A stretch of 64,000 nucleotides of DNA, taken from positions 1,571,207 through 1,635,206 of the forward strand of contig NZ_KB905466.1 of the NCBI RefSeq assembly GCF_000381365.1, in the 5' to 3' direction. This document shows, piece after piece, positions 15,536 to 57,453 of the stretch. The position numbers and the translations under genes were made by a program. How positions within the stretch are numbered: the stretch's first letter is position 1; the number at the start of each line of letters is the position of its first letter. Source of the stretch: Bacteroides salyersiae WAL 10018 = DSM 18765 = JCM 12988 (GTDB lineage Bacteria > Bacteroidota > Bacteroidia > Bacteroidales > Bacteroidaceae). The notes under the pieces were generated by a model. That model worked only from the letters and a program-made list of their open reading frames with translations, did no database searches and was not told the origin of the DNA.

Positions 15536-16897
15536 ATGAAAGAGTTAAATCTGACACAAGGAAGCGTTCCAAAGGTATTGCTCCAATTTGCAGTACCTTT
15601 CTTAGTAGCCAATATCCTCCAGGCACTCTATGGAGGAGCAGACCTTTTTGTTGTAGGACAATATGACGATTCGGCAGGAGTAGCAGCCGTAGCGATCGGC
15701 AGCCAGGTGATGCAAACCATTACAGGTATCATCCTCGGCATCACAACAGGTACTACCGTACTGATTGCCATAGCAACCGGTGCCAAAGATAACCGGAAAG
15801 TGGCTTCAACCATCGGATCCTCCATCTGGCTGTTTTCAATTACCGGTATCATACTGACCCTGCTCATGATACTTCTTCACAGTCAGATAGCAGAATGGAT
15901 GCATACCCCGACAGAAGCGATGTCCGACACTAAAAGTTATATCTTAGTGTGCTCCACCGGAATACTGTTCATTATAGGATACAATGTGGTATGCGGTATC
16001 CTGCGTGGATTGGGCGATTCAAAAACGCCCCTTTACTTCATAGCGTTAGCATGTATCATCAACATCGTTCTCGATTTTATATTAGTCGGGTATTTCCATC
16101 TCGGAGCCACCGGAGCAGCAATTGCCACCGTGACGGCACAAGGGGTCAGTTTTGCCACCGCACTCTGTTTCCTTCACCGGAAAGGTTTTCATTTCGAATT
16201 TACACGCCGCGACATCCGATTGAACGGTGTCCTATCCAAACGAATCCTGGCGTTAGGTGCCCCTATTGCATTACAAGATGCACTGATCAATGTCTCCTTT
16301 CTGATAATCACTGTTATTGTGAACCAGATGGGAGTCATCGCATCAGCTTCTTTGGGTGTTGTCGAGAAAATTATTGTTTTTGCCATGTTGCCCCCAATGG
16401 CCATATCCTCTGCCGTAGCCACAATGACGGCACAAAATTATGGTGCCGGACTCATACGGAGAATGAACCAATGCCTTCTTTCCGGCATCGGGCTCGCTCT
16501 CATTTTCGGAGTTACGGTCTGCCTGTACTCGCAATTCTTGCCGGAAACACTTACGGCCTTTTTCTCCAAAGACCCTGCGGTAATATCGATGGCAGCAGAA
16601 TATTTGAAAGGATACAGCATCGACTGTGTCATCGTCAGCTTTGTGTTCTGTATCAATTCTTATTTCAGCGGGCAAGGCAACTCACTGTTTCCAATGATAC
16701 ACAGTTTGATAGCGACTTTCCTGTTTCGTATTCCGCTTTCATACTGGTTCAGCCAAATAGACAGTTCCTCACTGTTTATCATGGGATTTGCACCCCCGCT
16801 CTCAACAATCGTATCACTCCTGATATGTATATGGTATTTGAGATACACAAAAGATAAAAGATCAACAACTCATCCTTGTTATTCACAACCCAGTTAA
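15536..16897 (+). CDS. MATE-family efflux transporter
   Basis: The 453-aa integral membrane protein has about 12 hydrophobic segments in two similar halves, starting KELNLTQGSVPKVLLQFAVPF, the usual MATE N-terminus. Further family signatures are QALYGGADLFVVGQY, YNVVCGILRGLGDSKTPLYF and QNYGAG. It exports small organic molecules, often drugs, in exchange for sodium or protons; the substrate is not evident. The start is ATG 15536, five bases after the acyltransferase stop, so they are co-transcribed. The stop codon lies in the loop of a 14-bp hairpin. The mid-part carries a conventional Gly/Ala-rich pore without frameshift. Confidence 0.92.
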   Translation: MKELNLTQGSVPKVLLQFAVPFLVANILQALYGGADLFVVGQYDDSAGVAAVAIGSQVMQTITGIILGITTGTTVLIAIATGAKDNRKVASTIGSSIWLFSITGIILTLLMILLHSQIAEWMHTPTEAMSDTKSYILVCSTGILFIIGYNVVCGILRGLGDSKTPLYFIALACIINIVLDFILVGYFHLGATGAAIATVTAQGVSFATALCFLHRKGFHFEFTRRDIRLNGVLSKRILALGAPIALQDALINVSFLIITVIVNQMGVIASASLGVVEKIIVFAMLPPMAISSAVATMTAQNYGAGLIRRMNQCLLSGIGLALIFGVTVCLYSQFLPETLTAFFSKDPAVISMAAEYLKGYSIDCVIVSFVFCINSYFSGQGNSLFPMIHSLIATFLFRIPLSYWFSQIDSSSLFIMGFAPPLSTIVSLLICIWYLRYTKDKRSTTHPCYSQPS

Positions 16898-16913
16898 CCG
16901 GGTTGTGAATAAC
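16878..16913. repeat. 14-bp perfect hairpin around the MATE stop codon
   Basis: The arms at 16878-16891 (GTTATTCACAACCC) and 16900-16913 are perfect inverted repeats with an 8-nt loop containing the TAA stop. No T-run follows, so it is a poor intrinsic terminator. It may act as a 3' RNA-stabilising or protein-binding site. Confidence 0.6.
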
Positions 16914-17131
16914 AAACAAGAAAACCAACAAACAGACAGAATATCAATAAATTAACCTGTTGATAACTTTGTTTAAAGAGAGACTTTATCTTGTAATGAT
17001 TAAGTAAACCGATCGTTACGAAGTCATAAATGATTTTACAAAAAGTCCGTATATACCCAAAAGCTCCGGAAACTGAACTTTCTCCATACCCGGTATGTTA
17101 TAATAGCATAAACAATAAAAACATTGAGGTT

Positions 17132-49695: not shown

Positions 49696-49772
49696 GGCGG
49701 GATAGCTCAGCTGGTTAGAGCGCATGATTCATAATCATGAGGTCCCCGGTTCAATCCCGGGTCCCGCTACCA
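49696..49772 (+). tRNA. tRNA-Met (CAT anticodon)
   Basis: A 77-nt cloverleaf includes CCA: acceptor GGCGGGA / TCCCGCT, D arm GCTCAGCTGGTTAGAGC, anticodon stem-loop with TTCATAA loop, and T arm CCGGTTCAATCCCGG. The anticodon stem lacks the three G-C pairs of initiator tRNA, so it is probably the elongator. The CCA is encoded. Confidence 0.95.
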
Positions 49773-49919
49773 AAAGAAAATTAGCGTTTGGGAGGCTTCC
49801 ACTCTTAGGCGCTTTTTTATTCCCCAAAACTGATCGATTTCTGTAGTGCTGTAAGAAAGGGATCAACGTGAAAAAACGATTAAAGATATTTCAATGATTC
49901 AGAATCGTAACCACTCTCT

Positions 49920-50179
49920 TTATCCACTTAAATAATATCAATTATTCACACTGTTATTAACAGGGTTATTAACAAGTATACACAAAGTTATTAACAAGAT
50001 AATCCCCTGATCATTAAAGAATCTCAAATAGAGAAAGGAAAGTCGAAAAGAGTACCCCCGGATAAAGAATAATCCTCACGGCTATTTTCAATGATCAAAA
50101 AGCCTGTATCTATCTACAAGACATTATCAACATCGTTACCAACAGGGTTATCAACAGATAATCACCTTAGTTATCAACA
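49920..50179 (+). other. cluster of ten DnaA-box-like 9-mers (candidate oriC or DnaA-binding locus)
   Basis: Nine-mers close to TTATNCACA/TTATNAACA, all on the plus strand, start at 49920 (TTATCCACT), 49942 (TTATTCACA), 49954, 49966 and 49988 (TTATTAACA), 49976 (GTATACACA), 50124, 50148 and 50171 (TTATCAACA) and 50136 (TTACCAACA). Spacing is often 12 bp. The DNA to the right (50180-50420) is very AT-rich. The gap 49773-50515 has no gene. The clustering and shared orientation are typical of a replication-origin-type DnaA array. Confidence 0.6.
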
Positions 50180-50424
50180 GGATAACTCAATGATTTACAA
50201 TCAATTGATTAATTTATTCACTTAATATATTTAATTGTTTTATAACAGACACCTTTGTTATCGTACAATTGAAGTATATAAATATCCGATACAAGACTTC
50301 CCAATTCATTTATATCCTCAATCTACATTATATATTTCTCAGTTTTACTATACACTTTTATAGCGAAAGCATCAGATAATTCAAATATCGAAATTAACCG
50401 TGATTTATAAGGTCAGCTATTTTG

Positions 50425-50476
50425 AAAAAACAGAAAAGGAAGGCATGTCATTTTTTCTATTCTGACACACCTTCCT
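50425..50476 (-). terminator. intrinsic terminator of the secreted-protein cluster
   Basis: On the minus strand a 14-bp stem (50463-50476 with 50437-50450, AGGAAGG/CCTTCCT ends) is followed by TTTTCTGTTTTTT, 40 bp after the 50516 gene stop. Confidence 0.75.
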
Positions 50477-50515: not shown

Positions 50516-52432
50516 TTATCTTACAAACTTTGTATCATAAGATCGCCCTTCCGTATCCGAGACCTGTAAACCATACATACCTTTCTCCAATGAACTTATA
50601 TCAATGATATTATTGTCAACCTTGCCTTCTCTTACTATCATTGAATGATTCAAGTCTAACACTCTATAATCTATTAACGCCCTGTCATCCAAGCTTCTTT
50701 TACGGCCTTTCTCTAATTTCAAGGACAAAAGGCCACCATTTACTTGTGAATTTAGAGTGTATGTTGCCGGCACTAATGGAGCAACAATTAATTGTTCACT
50801 AACAGTTTCTCCATATTTATTCATGGCACGCAATTTAAAAGTAGTACTATACTCCTTATCCACCGAAGCTATAAAATAGCCATCTCGCACATCCTCAACA
50901 TAATAAGTAAAAGGAACAGGAGATCCTTCTTCTAATTGTTCAACCAAAATTTTTTCTGTTCCTTCCACATTCTTAAATCCTATTTTCACATCCACATAGT
51001 AATCGTCCGCAACAGTCCTCGTCTGTGGCATTACTTTAGAAAAAGCCATCTCCGGTTTTTGAGGGAGGTAATCTAAAAGAAAATAGCGAGCCAATCTATT
51101 TACTTCTACAGGATAACTTGTATAATTAACCCGACAACGTAAATATCCATCACTGGAACGTGCATATTGATCTGCCTTATTCACATCAATAGAAGATGGC
51201 ATAAATGAAACCTCACTTTCATTCCACGAAGAAGTAGATGGTATAATTTCCCAAGTACCGTCTTTACGTAAAACACTGACCACCCATCCATACAGTATGT
51301 CACCATCATCATCTAACGCATAAGAACTATGTTGCCATATATACTTATCCACATCATCTTTATCAACAACTTCCTCATTTCTTAAAGCGACATTATAATT
51401 CAAACTTTTTTGAGGATTAGAGAAAGTACACACTTCATCATACCTTTTAGCCTTATCTGTAGAAGTAGAAGTTACAGTAGGCTCTCCACCACCGCCACCA
51501 CCAACAGCTGTATAGTGGACCCAATCAATTGCCTTTAAGAAGCCTTTAAACCATCCACCGATATTGCGTATAGAAGTACCACGAGGTAAATCGGGTTGCA
51601 TCAGCCTCGTTTCATTATCCGTCTCATCCGGTTTAAAAAAACATAAAGAACGTCCATACTCAAATATAGTAGGAGAATATAAACCATATGGCCCAAAACC
51701 GCCAACCGACAAGGTTGCTTTATTTGATGTAGCATAACTATATGCCTTAAAAGGATCAAGCACTTGGTTTCCTAAAACAACCAAATCAAAAGGAAATAAA
51801 GAATTTCTATCAAATTCAATTACCTTTGTTGCATTATCTCCCCGAGCACTAAAATAAAATCCCATTATTTTGCAAAGTTCACGCAATGCTACCGTTACAA
51901 AATCATACTTGTCTTCTTGGACATCATTTAGTGAAAACGAATATATATCATCACTATTAAAAATTATCTCGCCATCAGGTTTATCAAAAAAGCTCATCCC
52001 AACTTTAGCATTTCCAAGCCCTAAATCTTTAAATTTCCACTTTATCGTAGATCGCCAAGCTCTGGAAAGATCGTCACGCGGATCCATTTTGCAAGAATCC
52101 GTATGAAGAGTTGTTTTAGCAATTACATTACTTCCCCTCAACTTTCCGAACTTAACTTTCACCTTAATGGGTAAAGCGGTAGGCAACTGTTCTTCAAAAA
52201 TACGGCAGGCATGTTCAAAAGCATTCTTCCTATCTAAATTTTGTTCCCACTCATTACCCTCATATATTACTTGAATAATTGTTCCGCCAACAACTTCTCG
52301 TACTATTGGTTTGAGAATACTCTCCTTACGAAAGAAGTCTCTCCCCAGACTAATCACCTCAGTTCCGTCCTCTTGAGCATAAGCGAATCCCACACACCCC
52401 AAAAACAAGAATAATAGTAATAATTTTCTCAT
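50516..52432 (-). CDS. secreted protein with degenerate metalloprotease-like domain and C-terminal sorting-type domain
   Basis: The 638-aa protein has a signal peptide ending near GFAYAQ. Residues about 40-240 look like a zincin-type secreted domain (ACRIFEEQLPTALPIKVKVKFG, then FVTVALRELCKIMGFYFS). Where an active enzyme would have HExxHxLG there is RELCKIMGF, so zinc binding and catalysis are probably lost. Immunoglobulin-like beta segments follow, and a C-terminal ~60-residue domain (ISSLEKGMYGLQVSDTEG) resembles a T9SS sorting tail. It is downstream of two related genes. Role unknown; perhaps a surface binding protein. Confidence 0.72.
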   Translation of the reverse strand: MRKLLLLFLFLGCVGFAYAQEDGTEVISLGRDFFRKESILKPIVREVVGGTIIQVIYEGNEWEQNLDRKNAFEHACRIFEEQLPTALPIKVKVKFGKLRGSNVIAKTTLHTDSCKMDPRDDLSRAWRSTIKWKFKDLGLGNAKVGMSFFDKPDGEIIFNSDDIYSFSLNDVQEDKYDFVTVALRELCKIMGFYFSARGDNATKVIEFDRNSLFPFDLVVLGNQVLDPFKAYSYATSNKATLSVGGFGPYGLYSPTIFEYGRSLCFFKPDETDNETRLMQPDLPRGTSIRNIGGWFKGFLKAIDWVHYTAVGGGGGGEPTVTSTSTDKAKRYDEVCTFSNPQKSLNYNVALRNEEVVDKDDVDKYIWQHSSYALDDDGDILYGWVVSVLRKDGTWEIIPSTSSWNESEVSFMPSSIDVNKADQYARSSDGYLRCRVNYTSYPVEVNRLARYFLLDYLPQKPEMAFSKVMPQTRTVADDYYVDVKIGFKNVEGTEKILVEQLEEGSPVPFTYYVEDVRDGYFIASVDKEYSTTFKLRAMNKYGETVSEQLIVAPLVPATYTLNSQVNGGLLSLKLEKGRKRSLDDRALIDYRVLDLNHSMIVREGKVDNNIIDISSLEKGMYGLQVSDTEGRSYDTKFVR

Positions 52433-52467
52433 GATTTATCCTTTCTTTTATAATGGTTAGTACAGCT

Positions 52468-53469
52468 CTATTCTTTCATCATCTTAAAGATCGCTTCTCC
52501 TTGAGAAGATTTATTTCTATATAAAACAAAATATACACCTTGTATAAGGTTCGAAACATCAATCTCACTCATCGGAACTCCCACATATTTCACAAGCCGT
52601 CCTCTGGAATCGTATATAGATAAAGGAAAAATATCACTCATACCATCTTGCACAAACAAAATATTTTCTACCGGATTCGGATAGAATGGCGCATTCTCCA
52701 TTTTAACAGAGGGAGGGATAGATGTAGCCACTTTCGCAGTGTATAAAGTGTCTTCACACTCAACTGTTCCACTAAAATTATAGGAAAAAAAGCGAAAACA
52801 ACGATCCCCATCATAAAAAGGCAAAAGACCAATTCCTTTGTCCGCATCAACGTCAGCCGTAAAGAACGAAGACACTGCATGGCCTGTAAAAGACACATCT
52901 TGCTCCAAACAATAAATATTTTCCATTCTATCAGAAGTAATCTGTATCGTCATGTATGCGTCATCATATATATTCCATTGGGCATCGTAGTTACTCCAGG
53001 TTACATCCAACACTCTAACCTTCGGTAAAGAGGGAAGTAAATTTATATAAAAGTCTCTATCAAGTTGTATTTTTCGTCCTTGATACTCTCCCGAAAAGGT
53101 TACTTTCCCTTTAAAATAAACTGAGCTATCATTTTCTATCGTGTATCTTCGATACTTGGGATCAGAATATCCATATCCTGCCAATGAATTTATCACAATC
53201 CCATAATCCAATGAAGCTGCATCTTTCACTTTCACGTAATTTCCCTGCTCTACTTCGACCCCAAAACCCCATTCGCAAACATTCGGAATTATGATCTTCC
53301 CCCAATTATCTACAACATGAAAAGCACAACTATCATCCAGTAATAAAGCTCCGTACTCATCTAAAGAGATATCACTCGATTTTATTACAGTTCCAGAAAG
53401 AGTATAATTATTTTGCGTATAGACACTCAAAGAACAAGTAACAATCAATATAAAAACCAAACATTTCAT
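52468..53469 (-). CDS. secreted protein with T9SS-like C-terminal domain
   Basis: The protein is 333 aa from ATG 53469, whose ATG shares one base with the TGA of the upstream gene (TGATG), so the two are coupled; an open frame upstream is not used. The signal peptide MKCLVFILIVTCSLSVYTQ is clear. The body is beta-rich with no known catalytic motif. The C-terminus (FYPNPVENILFVQDGMSD, then IYDSRGRLVKYV and LIQGVYFVLYRN) is a standard Por-secretion-type sorting domain, predicting export through the outer membrane. Function unknown. Confidence 0.75.
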   Translation of the reverse strand: MKCLVFILIVTCSLSVYTQNNYTLSGTVIKSSDISLDEYGALLLDDSCAFHVVDNWGKIIIPNVCEWGFGVEVEQGNYVKVKDAASLDYGIVINSLAGYGYSDPKYRRYTIENDSSVYFKGKVTFSGEYQGRKIQLDRDFYINLLPSLPKVRVLDVTWSNYDAQWNIYDDAYMTIQITSDRMENIYCLEQDVSFTGHAVSSFFTADVDADKGIGLLPFYDGDRCFRFFSYNFSGTVECEDTLYTAKVATSIPPSVKMENAPFYPNPVENILFVQDGMSDIFPLSIYDSRGRLVKYVGVPMSEIDVSNLIQGVYFVLYRNKSSQGEAIFKMMKE

Positions 53470-55184
53470 CACTGACACATTTTTCGGGTTACTGTTTTGC
53501 CATTCGTATATGTAAGTGTTACGATGTATATTCCTTTTGACAAACAACTAACAGATTCATAATTATCTGTTCGAAGAACTATTCTCCCCTGTATATCCCT
53601 TACTTCTATTTGTGCAATTTCTGAGTTTATAACCTCTTCTTGTATTAAAGTAGAATGATTTAAGAGTTCCATCTGATTTGGAATTTCTACAGTATAATAT
53701 ACTTTTCCCTCATTATTACTTAATTCCATATCAACCCAAGACATTCCTATCATAAAAATACGTTTAAACCTGAGATGAGCAATATAAGGTTCATAATAAA
53801 AGTGCGTATTGACTATATCTCCAAATTCTTCAGACTGTTCTACATAAAGATAATCAGCCCCATCATATATCACAGTGATATCAAGATTATAATATCTTGT
53901 TCCAGAAATTGGAGTTATAGAATCCACTTTCACAGAGATAAAGGTTGGTTTAGTACTAAGATACACATGAAATACTTTAGACACCTCCTTACCACCAACA
54001 ATAGCATTCAAGCTTATTTTACCCTTAATATCACCGTTTACATTTTTCCTATATTTAGCTAATTCATCCACTTTATCTATTGCAAACTCAGAAGATTCTC
54101 CCTTTTTTATGAGAACATAATCCATCTCGTTATTCAACAATTCATATTTCCACGAATACTTTATTATATTTCCGGAAGGAATCTCCGCACGAAAACTATA
54201 ACCTCGCGTCGCAGAAGCCATCCCCGTATTATCAATACCATCTGCTACAATTTTCAACCCTTTTTCCGGTTCTTTCCAACCAATTGTCTCAAGAACTTCC
54301 TGTGTTTTTCTATCTACTTGCTGATTCTTGTCTCCAATTCTCATATTGTATGACATCAAATCCCCTGTTGTATCAAAATAACTTAGATAATTATAGCCCT
54401 GAAATTCCGGTGAAGCATATAATTTAAGATTCTCATTATTAGTAGTTTTATAATAAACATTGTTTCCTGTTACAAATGAAACAAGTTCCTGACTCGTACG
54501 TCCATTATTAGGCATTTCATTTAAACACACGTTATTGGAATTTATAACAAAATCATCAAAAGGAGAAAAGCATCTTCTTACAAAAAAAGTAATACCTTTC
54601 GTAGAATTATCAATGACAGATGATCCAAATCCTAATGACATCGCAATAGCACGTAACATTGCCGTTGTAAGATTCTTCTTATTTATTGTTTCTCCACTAA
54701 AGCTATAATCCCAATCCACATCGTCATTTATTTTAATTATAGCATCCTCTACATTTCTTTTATCATCTGACAAAAAGTTCATAAAATAGCTCTGAGAATA
54801 CATTTTAGTAGTACCTAACAAAGACGTATATCGTACCTGAGCCTCAAAATCCTCTGCTCCCACCCCCATTTTCTCTTTCTCAAATTTTAGAACAACTTTC
54901 TTAGGGATATACAACTTTTCTTCCCACAATTGTGCAGCAACTTTTATACAGCATTGCATTTCTTCGCTCATTCCCGCTTCACATTGTACTTCAATAATCC
55001 CTCCAAAATCACTATTAGAACGTTCTGTTCGTAACAAGCAAGGCTTTATGGTTTGCAAAGCTGTTGGAGCAGTATCAAGACGCCCTTTAAAAACCAAAAT
55101 CGTATCTTGTTGAGCTATCAACAAACCGATGCTCTGTGCCATCAATAGAACGATTAATATCGGCAAATGCTTCTTCATCATCAT
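53469..55184 (-). CDS. secreted protein with degenerate metalloprotease-like domain and T9SS-like tail
   Basis: The 571-aa protein has a signal peptide ending near IGLLIAQ. It is a paralogue, in layout, of the 50516 gene product. The segment LTTAMLRAIAMSLGFGSSVID stands where active relatives read T-V-A-L-H-E-I-G-H-x-L-G-F. The His-Glu-His triad is absent, so it is probably a non-catalytic fold. Beta domains follow, and the C-terminus (EVRDIQGRIVLRTDNY, then LSKGIYIVTLTYTNG) is a sorting domain. It is the first gene of a two-gene coupled pair; the DUF3244 gene lies 75 bp upstream. Confidence 0.75.
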   Translation of the reverse strand: MMMKKHLPILIVLLMAQSIGLLIAQQDTILVFKGRLDTAPTALQTIKPCLLRTERSNSDFGGIIEVQCEAGMSEEMQCCIKVAAQLWEEKLYIPKKVVLKFEKEKMGVGAEDFEAQVRYTSLLGTTKMYSQSYFMNFLSDDKRNVEDAIIKINDDVDWDYSFSGETINKKNLTTAMLRAIAMSLGFGSSVIDNSTKGITFFVRRCFSPFDDFVINSNNVCLNEMPNNGRTSQELVSFVTGNNVYYKTTNNENLKLYASPEFQGYNYLSYFDTTGDLMSYNMRIGDKNQQVDRKTQEVLETIGWKEPEKGLKIVADGIDNTGMASATRGYSFRAEIPSGNIIKYSWKYELLNNEMDYVLIKKGESSEFAIDKVDELAKYRKNVNGDIKGKISLNAIVGGKEVSKVFHVYLSTKPTFISVKVDSITPISGTRYYNLDITVIYDGADYLYVEQSEEFGDIVNTHFYYEPYIAHLRFKRIFMIGMSWVDMELSNNEGKVYYTVEIPNQMELLNHSTLIQEEVINSEIAQIEVRDIQGRIVLRTDNYESVSCLSKGIYIVTLTYTNGKTVTRKMCQ

Positions 55185-55258
55185 ATTATTATTAAAAGGT
55201 AGTACACTAAAATTAAAAAGAACTATTTCAATTCAAACCATCCATAGATATATCCACC

Positions 55259-55621
55259 TTATGAATTTGAAAGTTCCAATAAATAAACTCCGGGAGTATA
55301 AGCATCAATAGGAATACAATATTTCCCAGGAATATCGATCAAAAGGGAATGAGAAAGAAGTATTTGATTCTTGCCGACAATGGTCACTGTAATATCACTA
55401 CCCACTTCCATAAATTCTAATATGAGAATGTCTTTTTCAAGAGAAGCAATGACAGGTATATAAGGAATAGAACGATGGTCACCTTCATCTCCAAAATCAT
55501 CGCCTTTCCAATGACCATCTAAATTGATTTTCCCAAACGATGTAATAACAGGATTATTCCTTTGTGCAAAAGCCGTACAGTTAAGACAAATCAATAATAA
55601 TAGAATAGCACGTGTTTTCAT
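55259..55621 (-). CDS. DUF3244-family small secreted protein
   Basis: The 120-aa protein has a signal peptide ending near NCTAFAQ. The body matches the DUF3244 pattern of Bacteroides: a first strand ending GHWKGDD, then HRSIPYIPVIASLEKDILIL, then VGSDITVTIVGKNQILLS and a final Tyr-Leu-Leu-Glu strand. This is a small immunoglobulin-like beta sandwich of unknown function, often encoded beside TPR-type regulators and secreted proteins, as here. Confidence 0.82.
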   Translation of the reverse strand: MKTRAILLLLICLNCTAFAQRNNPVITSFGKINLDGHWKGDDFGDEGDHRSIPYIPVIASLEKDILILEFMEVGSDITVTIVGKNQILLSHSLLIDIPGKYCIPIDAYTPGVYLLELSNS

Positions 55622-55759
55622 TTCTTCAGTGTTTTTTAATTATGCTACAAAGCTAAGTAATTAATCTGTACCTATCGCAAACACAGAGGTAGACAGGTTA
55701 TAATACTATAAATCAAAACATTGTGTCCAATAAATACATATTTAGTGGACAATTTCAAT

Positions 55760-56089
55760 TTAGCTTTCTTGCATTTTTTGAAGAAATTCATTTAAAGATT
55801 CCTCTTTCTTTAGCCTCAAGCGCTCTTTCAGCCGGGATTTTGCTTTGAAAATAGTACGAATATCCTTACTATCAAAAACGACCATCAACTCTTTAGAGGT
55901 AAATCCTAATAATATAAACGCCAAAAGTTCAATATCATGTTTTGTCAATTGATTATGTTCTTCTTTCAATTTAACGAGAAGATCTGCATGTAAGCAATTT
56001 GCCAAATTAAATATTTTATCCCATTCTTTAGAAGTCAGTTTTTCGGCTATGACGGTTCCATTCTTCAATATCTTCATAAGTTCGCTCAC
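55760..56089 (-). CDS. C-terminal DNA-binding fragment of a frameshifted TPR regulator
   Basis: This 109-aa frame starts with a GTG and has no start site of its own. Its reading frame continues upstream without a stop (KVRDLTYQINRLAQENVELR) to the A-tract at 56179-56184. It holds LTSKEWDKIFNLANCLHADLL and LTKHDIELLAFILLGFTSKELM, the helix-turn-helix-like C-terminal domain usual in Bacteroides TPR regulators. It is best read as the tail of the 56146-57453 gene, separated by a one-base frameshift. Alone it would lack sensor and membrane parts. Confidence 0.7.
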   Translation of the reverse strand: MSELMKILKNGTVIAEKLTSKEWDKIFNLANCLHADLLVKLKEEHNQLTKHDIELLAFILLGFTSKELMVVFDSKDIRTIFKAKSRLKERLRLKKEESLNEFLQKMQES

Positions 56090-56145
56090 ATCTACTTTAC
56101 TACGAAGTTCTACATTTTCCTGAGCAAGTCGGTTTATTTGATAGG

Positions 56146-57453
56146 TCAGGTCTCTGACTTTGGAATCCGTCTCCTTTGTTTTTTATCGTCCTGTTGTTTA
56201 TACCTGTTTATTTCATTCAAAAACACAGCAATCTGCCTGTTGTTTTTCTCCAATGATTTTTCGATCTGTTTTATTTGTAATTTCGCTCGCCAATACCTAT
56301 TATAAAAATAATACGTTACACCCAAAAATAAAATGGATACCACTATAGATCCCAATTGCAATATCCTGTTTTCCAATTTAATCTGTAGCTTTTCTTTTTC
56401 TAATCTCTCTCTCTGATATCCTGTTTGAAGACGCATCAGGTCTTCCCTTTTTTTCTCATTTTCAGCAATATATAATAGTGAATCGGACTTTTCTTTCAAA
56501 GTTAAAGCTTGTTCATAGTCATGTCTGGTTTTGGCTAACCCGGCCAAACAGGCATAAGCGTCAGAACGGGTAAACAAACTGCGGCTATCCAGACAGCATT
56601 TTAAATATTCTTCCGCCAACTCTTTCTGCCCCATCAGTTGATATAAACGCCCCAAAGACATATAGTGCATTGTAAGTCTATCTTCGCGAGGTTCTTCATC
56701 AATTATTTTTAGAAAAATTTCTTCGGCTTTAAGATATTCTTTTTGAAAGCTATACATCATTCCCAACATTTTAGAAGCCCCTATTCTCAACAAGACGGGA
56801 TTATCCGAAAGTAGTTGCAAACTCTTTGTCGCGCACTGATAGACACTATCCATCTCCTGTTTTAGAAAAAAAGAACTTCCCATCGTCTGATAGGTATAAG
56901 CAACCCCCAATGTATCTTTTGCCCGATAATAGTAAACAATAGCCAGCCTGCAGGTATTGATAGCCTCATCATAAAGCGATTGTTCACGATTTAAAATCGA
57001 TATATCTGTAAGCAGTAATCCCATGATTTTGTATTCCTCCGTTTTTTCCAAAATGTGCCGGGCATCCAAAAAAGTTTTCATTGCCCGTGACGTTTCCCGC
57101 TTTCCTTGAAGCACCCGCCCGTAATAATACAACGCTTTGCCGTACTTTCGTTTATTACCGTTTTTCTTGAAATAATCAACAGCAAAAGTGATGGAAGAAT
57201 CGACAGACATATCCATATAATTTTTATCACGTGCCTGTGTCAACAACAACACATAATCTGCCCGTTTTTTGTCAGACAAATCATCAGGATCGGATATTCC
57301 ACTCAACAAATGCCAAGCACTGTCCGGATACATTTCCATACACGATTCTGCCCGTTGAAGAGTCGTCACAATCTCATCCGGCCTGGAGACACACGACCAG
57401 AAAGCTACAATAAAAAGAGATAAAAGGGTAATGGTGCTTCCGTTCTGTTTCAT
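56146..57453 (-). CDS. TPR-repeat membrane regulator, N-terminal part (frameshifted)
   Basis: The 435-aa protein has a lipobox-like signal (FIVAFWSC) and about six TPR-type repeats between residues 60 and 330 (for example YEQALTLKEKSDSLL). One membrane helix lies near 365-385 (SIVVSILFLGVTYYF), then a coiled coil. The usual family member continues into a cytosolic helix-turn-helix domain, for a total near 570 aa. Here the frame ends early in RRRIPKSET. One additional A in the T6/A6 tract at 56179-56184 would join it to 55760-56089. It may sense envelope signals and control the adjacent secreted genes; this is inference. Confidence 0.78.
   Translation of the reverse strand: MKQNGSTITLLSLFIVAFWSCVSRPDEIVTTLQRAESCMEMYPDSAWHLLSGISDPDDLSDKKRADYVLLLTQARDKNYMDMSVDSSITFAVDYFKKNGNKRKYGKALYYYGRVLQGKRETSRAMKTFLDARHILEKTEEYKIMGLLLTDISILNREQSLYDEAINTCRLAIVYYYRAKDTLGVAYTYQTMGSSFFLKQEMDSVYQCATKSLQLLSDNPVLLRIGASKMLGMMYSFQKEYLKAEEIFLKIIDEEPREDRLTMHYMSLGRLYQLMGQKELAEEYLKCCLDSRSLFTRSDAYACLAGLAKTRHDYEQALTLKEKSDSLLYIAENEKKREDLMRLQTGYQRERLEKEKLQIKLENRILQLGSIVVSILFLGVTYYFYNRYWRAKLQIKQIEKSLEKNNRQIAVFLNEINRYKQQDDKKQRRRIPKSET

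What the first reader, a model, noticed from the sequence alone, without database searches (positions are those of the whole stretch)
49920..50420. Ten DnaA-box-like 9-mers beside AT-rich DNA: candidate oriC or DnaA-titration locus
All boxes share orientation, many at 12-bp spacing, in a gene-free gap next to tRNA-Met and followed by an AT-rich stretch. Gene orientation does not switch here (genes on both sides mostly face left), which is unusual for an origin and leaves a titration or regulatory DnaA site as an alternative.
Basis: partly seen in the sequence, partly recalled or inferred. Interest (0 to 1): 0.7.

Follow-up and report, generated by a model that had tools for sequence, protein, structure and literature searches.

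The report
tRNA-linked DnaA-box array, not the origin
A tight array of binding sites resembling those of the replication starter DnaA lies just behind a methionine tRNA gene in a Bacteroides chromosome, far from the likely true origin, and its conservation in relatives suggests a locus that soaks up or switches off DnaA, much like E. coli datA.

Summary
In detail: seven same-strand TTATNMACA 9-mers in a 743-bp gene-free gap (shuffles: mean 0.16, maximum 2), mostly in two 12-bp-spaced arrays, the best such site in the genome. It is very unlikely to be oriC: GC skew flips 853 kb away, beside a DUF4294/HHH/SpoU-methylase/NadA gene set that carries its own 12-bp-spaced boxes in 14 congeners. The array is a conserved element of part of the genus Bacteroides. 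It lies behind elongator tRNA-Met in 6 genomes (window, B. nordii, B. fragilis strains, others) and behind initiator tRNA-fMet in 15 others; none of 16 genomes where both could be examined has both. In 10 of 12 placeable genomes it lies on the same chromosome arm, 604-977 kb from oriC. All 24 arrays aligned end in one cap, AGTTAYYAACARGNTAA, a box merged with an IHF-consensus-like site. E. coli datA shares this layout: behind a tRNA operon, DnaA boxes plus an IHF site, about 0.1 genome from oriC. Best reading: a datA-like DnaA sink or inactivation locus. DnaA binding, ATP hydrolysis and any effect on initiation are inferred, not shown.

The parts
49696..49772 (+). Elongator-type tRNA-Met (anticodon CAT), upstream neighbour of the array
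   Evidence: ARAGORN, Rfam RF00005 69.9 bits; elongator-type is my reading of the anticodon stem
49783..49819 (+). Intrinsic terminator of the tRNA (12-bp stem, T-rich tail) between tRNA and array
   Evidence: (first fold)
49942..50002 (+). Array A: boxes at 49942, 49954, 49966, weak 49976, 49988, ending in the cap at 49986-50002
50124..50185 (+). Array B, a second copy: boxes at 50124, 50136 (TTACCAACA), 50148, 50171, ending in the cap at 50169-50185
49920..49928 (+). Outlying 1-mismatch box TTATCCACT
50169..50211 (.). Cap of array B plus IHF-consensus-like sites (TAAnnnnTTGATW): 1 mismatch at 50172-50184 (-), 0 mismatches at 50199-50211 (-). Candidates only
   Evidence: at 1 mismatch such sites are common in this window (88 found, 76 expected by chance)
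50190..50440 (.). AT-rich flank, 74.9% AT
50516..52432 (-). Convergent ORF that closes the gap; no Pfam hit; first of a block of genes that varies between species at this tRNA

Best explanation
The locus is a DnaA-binding regulatory array outside the origin, working like E. coli datA. Head-to-tail boxes 12 bp apart let DnaA assemble a short oligomer, and the last box is fused to a site resembling that of an IHF/HU-family bending protein (the cap). It lies about 0.16 genome from oriC on one arm, so it is duplicated fairly soon after initiation and then holds or inactivates DnaA, helping to prevent re-initiation. Because it starts just behind a Met-tRNA terminator, leaky tRNA transcription could reach it and tie its occupancy to growth. 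Shown here: the array, its conservation, the tRNA link, the arm and distance, the skew switch elsewhere, and similar 12-bp boxes at the oriC locus. Inferred: that DnaA binds, that a bending protein binds, that initiation is affected, and whether this is titration or stimulated ATP hydrolysis.
For: Not chance; best site in the genome. The skew switch marks oriC elsewhere in this genome and in G021, where sampled skew changes sign between 4.03 and 4.09 Mb with the same DUF4294 gene at 4.069 Mb. A 12-bp triple of boxes (2 mismatches allowed) gave 53 matches in 36 of 158 congeners: 14 at that oriC locus, 20 behind a Met tRNA, 19 elsewhere, against 16 for the reversed control. One oriC-adjacent cluster (L429) holds an exact TTATCCACA. 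In a tRNA census, arrays (score 6 or more) lie behind tRNA-fMet in 14 of 52 genomes and tRNA-Met in 5 of 44, plus G014 beyond an island and G155 outside the census; no antisense control row exceeded 4. Conservation peaks on the boxes: 31 of 42 core columns at 80% or more in the fMet alignment, 21 of the next 60, 4 of the 60 after. All 24 aligned arrays end in the cap; in all fetched DNA, which is biased towards these loci, the cap has 23 distinct contexts, 22 of them tRNA-linked arrays, reversed control 0. Arm and distance: 10 of 12 placeable genomes. The next gene is convergent at six of seven loci whose ORFs were listed: window, G014, G021, G063, G076, G091, not G072, so a promoter role is not obvious. 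E. coli datA lies downstream of tRNA glyV-X-Y, has DnaA boxes plus an IHF site, and responds to tRNA read-through (PMC10950094, abstract and part of the introduction). One DnaA-family match in this genome, so no Hda-like paralogue at E 0.001.
Against: No binding or replication data. The boxes read TTATYAACA rather than TTATCCACA. Of 41 genomes with both Met tRNAs examined, 26 have no array at either (for some only the first 1.5 kb was seen), so it is not general in the genus. Array-less genomes can also have tRNA-fMet on the left arm (G084, G074), so a tRNA there does not imply an array. Two placeable genomes break the distance rule: G180 (0.31, flipped) and G179 (0.53). IHF-consensus matches partly overlap the box itself and are common by chance; G030, G000 array A and G091 array A lack one at the cap. 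No tRNA was found at the 19 other box-pair loci fetched, 14 of them from other families. The tRNA switch may be a single event and the node placing the B. nordii/window pair has almost no support (0.008), so the arm correlation is not many independent cases.
Confidence: 0.6

Rival explanations
1. It is the chromosomal origin or a second active origin: DnaA opens the AT-rich flank and replication starts here.
For: Box array beside a 75% AT stretch; head-to-tail 12-bp boxes as at the oriC locus.
Against: Skew does not switch here and switches 853 kb away. The DUF4294 locus is the skew switch in a second genome too. Gene orientation does not diverge here. dnaA is on another contig, but it is not beside the skew switch either.
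Confidence: 0.04
2. It is a relic of the replication or attachment region of a mobile element that once integrated at the tRNA 3' end; the boxes were the element's own sites.
For: tRNA 3' ends are classic integration sites (recalled). G014 has an island with a phage-type integrase inside this tRNA, with the array beyond it. G072, G162 and G091 carry two arrays flanking cargo, and in G072/G162 the second follows what looks like a degenerate terminator copy. Genes beyond the array vary between species.
Against: One copy only of the tRNA 3' end in the window (20-mer, up to 4 substitutions). No similar DNA among 72,556 plasmid and 50,697 phage records and no exact match to a three-box pattern in viral contigs. 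Boxes are conserved across many species while flanks turn over. Arm and distance are conserved.
Confidence: 0.13
3. DnaA, or another protein, bound here acts locally as a transcription or replication road-block behind a head-on tRNA gene, insulating the convergent gene or the fork rather than controlling DnaA supply.
For: Directly behind the tRNA terminator in all but G014 and G080, boxes in tRNA sense orientation. In the 10 same-arm genomes the strand and arm of the tRNA make it head-on to the fork (my deduction). Mostly convergent neighbours.
Against: Does not explain why only one of two head-on Met tRNAs carries it, or the constant arm; many congeners lack it.
Confidence: 0.13
4. The 9-mers are bound by a protein other than DnaA (for example an IHF/HU-type or lineage-specific factor) and the DnaA-box likeness is incidental.
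For: Sequence is TTATYAACA, not TTATCCACA; the cap fits an IHF-type consensus in 21 of 24 arrays.
Against: Similar 12-bp box series lie at the skew-switch oriC locus, and an oriC-adjacent cluster holds TTATCCACA. The genome's DnaA is a canonical DnaA.
Confidence: 0.1

Closest known systems
E. coli datA (DDAH locus)
   Same: Non-coding DnaA-box cluster away from oriC (94.7 against 84.6 map minutes), directly downstream of a tRNA operon, with an IHF site (PMC10950094). Here: behind a Met tRNA terminator, 0.116-0.161 genome from oriC in the 9 same-arm genomes with a usable length, box plus IHF-like cap.
   Different: Boxes are uniform head-to-tail 12-bp arrays, sometimes duplicated; the tRNA is Met or fMet, not Gly; different phylum; homology to datA was not tested; DnaA-ATP hydrolysis unknown.
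E. coli DARS1/DARS2
   Same: Non-coding control loci for DnaA at conserved relative distances from oriC (PMC5010248 passages).
   Different: DARS reactivate DnaA; the tRNA link and IHF-like cap point to datA. Box geometry of DARS was not compared.
DnaA-box clusters for titration in B. subtilis and Streptomyces (recalled, not looked up)
   Same: Clusters outside oriC that bind DnaA and limit initiation.
   Different: Not known to me to be tRNA-linked.
Bacteroides oriC (DUF4294/HHH/SpoU-methylase locus found here)
   Same: 12-bp-spaced boxes of the same type.
   Different: oriC copies lie at the skew switch beside the start of the HHH gene and continue ...AACAGATA or ...AACAGACA; none of the 23 cap contexts is at oriC.

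Membership tests
datA-type locus | Cluster of DnaA boxes outside oriC | tested here: met
   (boxes by sequence only; binding untested)
datA-type locus | Immediately downstream of a tRNA gene | tested here: met
   Window: tRNA-Met 49696-49772, array from 49942; relatives:
datA-type locus | Conserved relative distance from oriC | tested here: met
   10 of 12 placeable genomes on one arm, 0.116-0.161 in the 9 with a usable length; G179 and G180 differ
datA-type locus | IHF-binding site | tested here: inconclusive
   Cap matches TAAnnnnTTGATW with 0-1 mismatch in 21 of 24 arrays (4 with none), but it overlaps the box and such matches are common by chance
datA-type locus | Stimulates DnaA-ATP hydrolysis; deletion causes untimely initiations | not testable with these tools
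   needs biochemistry and genetics
oriC | Located at the GC-skew switch | tested here: not met
   switch at C1:2.473-2.475 Mb, array at C1:1.621 Mb
oriC | DnaA boxes beside an AT-rich element | tested here: met
   not sufficient for an origin
Integrated mobile element | Second copy of the tRNA 3' end and an integrase | tested here: not met
   one copy of the tRNA 3' end in the window; no integrase among the six proteins scanned between the array and 57453

The most novel reading that the evidence does not exclude
Bacteroidota independently evolved a tRNA-coupled DnaA-inactivation locus: a compact box array fused to an IHF/HU-type site and placed so that tRNA-Met transcription read-through gates its activity. 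Selection keeps it on one replication arm about one-seventh of the genome from oriC, so that when the two Met tRNAs exchanged arms the array ended up behind the other tRNA.
Probability: 0.25. Interest if true: 0.8.

Novelty: new variant of a known kind. Interest (0 to 1): 0.6.

Why it matters
Seven searches of the paper library listed nothing, by title or abstract beginning, on a DnaA control locus outside oriC in Bacteroides. This names a concrete non-coding candidate with orthologues in B. nordii, B. fragilis strains, B. acidifaciens, B. xylanisolvens and others, plus a likely oriC to measure it against. If it acts like datA, the pairing of a tRNA gene with a DnaA sink arose in two phyla, which would make a link between tRNA output and replication testable as a general principle.

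Tried and rejected
oriC at this locus: rejected by skew. Mobile-element relic: not excluded, but no plasmid, phage or viral match and no second att copy in the window. Promoter regulation by DnaA: unlikely at the loci whose next gene is convergent. A swap of arms by inversion with a breakpoint between tRNA-Met and the array: not supported, because both flanks of tRNA-Met (START_2/LptF and the histidine-kinase block) are shared between the window, G021 and G012. A general tRNA link across the order: of 20 loci fetched (19 chosen from the pair hits, five of these congeners and 14 from other families, plus G098 taken around its own tRNA-Met), only G098 shows a tRNA; its cluster score is 5, below the cut.

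Own errors and limits: the triple-box pattern had a wrong offset and found nothing (redone); one search held a useless 10-base stretch; the fMet expression was wrong (redone); the second fold covered tRNA rather than terminator and is not used. In the tree, G122, G134, G175, G177 and G026 are labelled none although their tRNAs were not examined, and G071, G093, G096 and G104 were examined at one tRNA only. One search dropped tRNAs with under 300 bases of downstream sequence (for example tRNA-Met of G009, G001 and G071); 15 fMet and 9 tRNA-Met genomes had a row with under 2 kb. One search's list was cut after G120. The distances treat the contigs of G030, G063, G072, G179 and G180 as closed circles, and use the tRNA position for G030 and G076.

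Full report
Setting. The window is C1:1571207-1635206 of a 5.31-Mb, six-contig genome. Its START_2 protein is 98% identical to that of Bacteroides nordii JCM 12987, so this is a close Bacteroides relative; the species was not determined.

The observation. From 49850 to 50450 there are 14 nine-mers within 2 mismatches of TTATCCACA on the + strand and none on the - strand. Seven are strict TTATNMACA; 2000 dinucleotide shuffles of the gap gave mean 0.16, maximum 2. They form two arrays: 49942/49954/49966/49988 and 50124/50136/50148/50171. In the whole genome the 12-bp pair TTATNAACA-N3-TTATNAACA occurs exactly once, here, and three of the five 1-mismatch hits are also here; at 2 mismatches there are 35 matches in all against 19 for the reversed control.

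Not the origin. Skew on C1 was sampled in 20 stretches of 20 kb and in the window. It is negative in nearly all stretches up to 2.42 Mb (0.002 at 1.12 Mb and +0.067 at 1.50 Mb are exceptions) and positive in the three samples from 2.64 Mb on. At 5-kb resolution the switch falls at 2.473-2.475 Mb, although skew dips negative again at 2.58-2.625 Mb. The switch lies beside genes for a helix-hairpin-helix protein, a 201-aa DUF4294 protein, a SpoU-type methylase (called TrmH in my scripts) and NadA. In G021 sampled skew changes sign between 4.03 and 4.09 Mb, with the DUF4294 gene at 4.069 Mb. Of 50 DUF4294 loci, 18 have a box-cluster score of 5 or more just upstream on the gene's sense strand (the window genome scores 7) and none on the antisense strand. 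An oriC-adjacent cluster in G004 contains TTATCCACA. dnaA lies on contig C3, not beside the switch.

Where 12-bp arrays occur. A triple of boxes 12 bp apart, 2 mismatches allowed, gave 53 matches in 36 of 158 congeners, 16 for the reversed control. By gene content or tRNA, 14 are at the oriC locus (G001, G009, G012, G030, G063, G065, G068, G069, G070, G122, G155, G157, G162, G180), 12 are behind tRNA-fMet and 8 (four genomes, two each) behind tRNA-Met. The other 19 are scattered, about as many as the control gives.

A tRNA-linked element. I scored the DNA downstream of both Met tRNAs in congeners (boxes TATYMACA, 1 mismatch allowed, within 100 bp). With 6 as the cut, tRNA-fMet carries an array in 14 of 52 genomes (13 within 1.4 kb, G080 at 1.5 kb) and tRNA-Met in 5 of 44; no antisense row exceeds 4. 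Outside that count are G014, where an integrase island separates the tRNA from its array by about 12.5 kb, and G155, whose fMet array came. Of the array-bearing genomes the other Met tRNA could be examined in 16 (10 fMet-type, G179, 5 Met-type); none carries an array at both. Of 41 genomes with both examined, 26 have an array at neither. G072, G162 and G091 carry two arrays with one to several genes between them; in G072 and G162 the second follows what looks like a degenerate terminator copy. The window's arrays A and B look like the same duplication without cargo.

Anatomy. The boxes are the conserved part: in the fMet alignment 31 of 42 core columns are at least 80% identical, 8 of 9 in the outlying TTATTCACA, 12 of 29 before it, 21 of 60 after the core and 4 of the next 60. 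All 24 arrays aligned (14 fMet, 10 Met) end in AGTTAYYAACARGNTAA. In all DNA fetched, 3.4 Mb with redundancy and biased towards these loci, this cap has 23 distinct contexts: 22 tRNA-linked arrays and one further site in this window at 16.95 kb; the reversed control has none. The cap was defined from the arrays, so this shows shared structure, not function. Its reverse complement fits the IHF consensus TAAnnnnTTGATW quoted in PMC10950094 with at most 1 mismatch in 21 of 24 arrays (exceptions G030, G000 array A, G091 array A), 4 of them without a mismatch (G021, G180, G001, G091 array B). The window has 88 such sites at 1 mismatch against 76 expected, and the consensus overlaps the box, so this is suggestive only.

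Position. In 12 genomes array and DUF4294 gene can be placed on one contig. In 10 the array lies on the same side (left when the DUF4294 gene reads +), 604-977 kb away, 0.116-0.161 of the genome in the 9 with a usable length. G179 (0.53) and G180 (0.31, flipped) differ. In the 8 genomes with both Met tRNAs placed, the array-less one lies on the other arm at 0.10-0.18. In G072 and G076 the arrayed left-arm tRNA is tRNA-Met; in G021, G063, G069, G080, G062 and G030 it is tRNA-fMet. So among these the array follows the arm, not the tRNA. Against over-reading: array-less G084 and G074 also have tRNA-fMet on the left arm, and on the tree of three oriC-linked genes the arrayed genomes lie in one part of the genus, the switch may be a single event, and the node that places the B. 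nordii/window pair has support 0.008.

Mechanism. E. coli datA lies downstream of tRNA glyV-X-Y, combines DnaA boxes with an IHF site, promotes hydrolysis of DnaA-bound ATP, and loses IHF as tRNA transcription reads through (PMC10950094; abstract and first part of the introduction read). It lies at 94.7 min against oriC at 84.6 min. Passages of PMC5010248 report conserved relative distances of datA and DARS from oriC, perturbed control when they are moved, and that transcription through them is detrimental. The Bacteroides array matches the layout: boxes, tRNA terminator, distance, possible bending site. The genome shows one DnaA-family match at E 0.001; DnaA itself scores against the Hda model, so an Hda-like paralogue should have shown. 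I therefore commit to a datA-like sink or inactivation locus at 0.6. Membership is not claimed: ATP hydrolysis and an initiation phenotype are untested, and the IHF site is inconclusive.

Literature. Seven paper searches listed no paper, by title or abstract beginning, on a DnaA-binding locus outside oriC in Bacteroides. Of the papers, PMC10950094 was read in part and PMC5010248 in passages; the rest were seen only as listings.

Noticed in passing
window 16870-16975: A second small box site on the minus strand, with the same cap (AGTTATCAACAGGTTAA) and an inverted repeat (14-bp perfect arms) of two TTATTCACA boxes, in the gap after a MatE transporter gene; ARAGORN finds no tRNA there.
   Followed up: partly
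G000 C1:2473400-2475500 (L120:13400-15500): Likely oriC: skew switch with boxes partly inside the 5' end of a helix-hairpin-helix gene, beside DUF4294, SpoU-methylase and NadA genes; dnaA is on another contig.
   Followed up: partly
L129:9599-14040 (G014): Island with a phage-type integrase in the tRNA-Met 3' end, rebuilding the tRNA end in front of the box array.
   Followed up: partly
L228:5860-7445 and L229:6363-12430: Two same-orientation arrays flanking cargo genes behind tRNA-Met; in L229 the cargo includes a GMP synthase C-terminal part. May mark past insertions.
   Followed up: partly
window 50516-57453: Block of genes on the minus strand (type IX sorting tails, DUF3244, TPR protein) that differs between species at this tRNA.
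   Followed up: no
G030 genome: Six 267-aa frames with weak DnaA-family matches scattered over the chromosome, probably transposon helper ATPases (the guess is mine).
   Followed up: no
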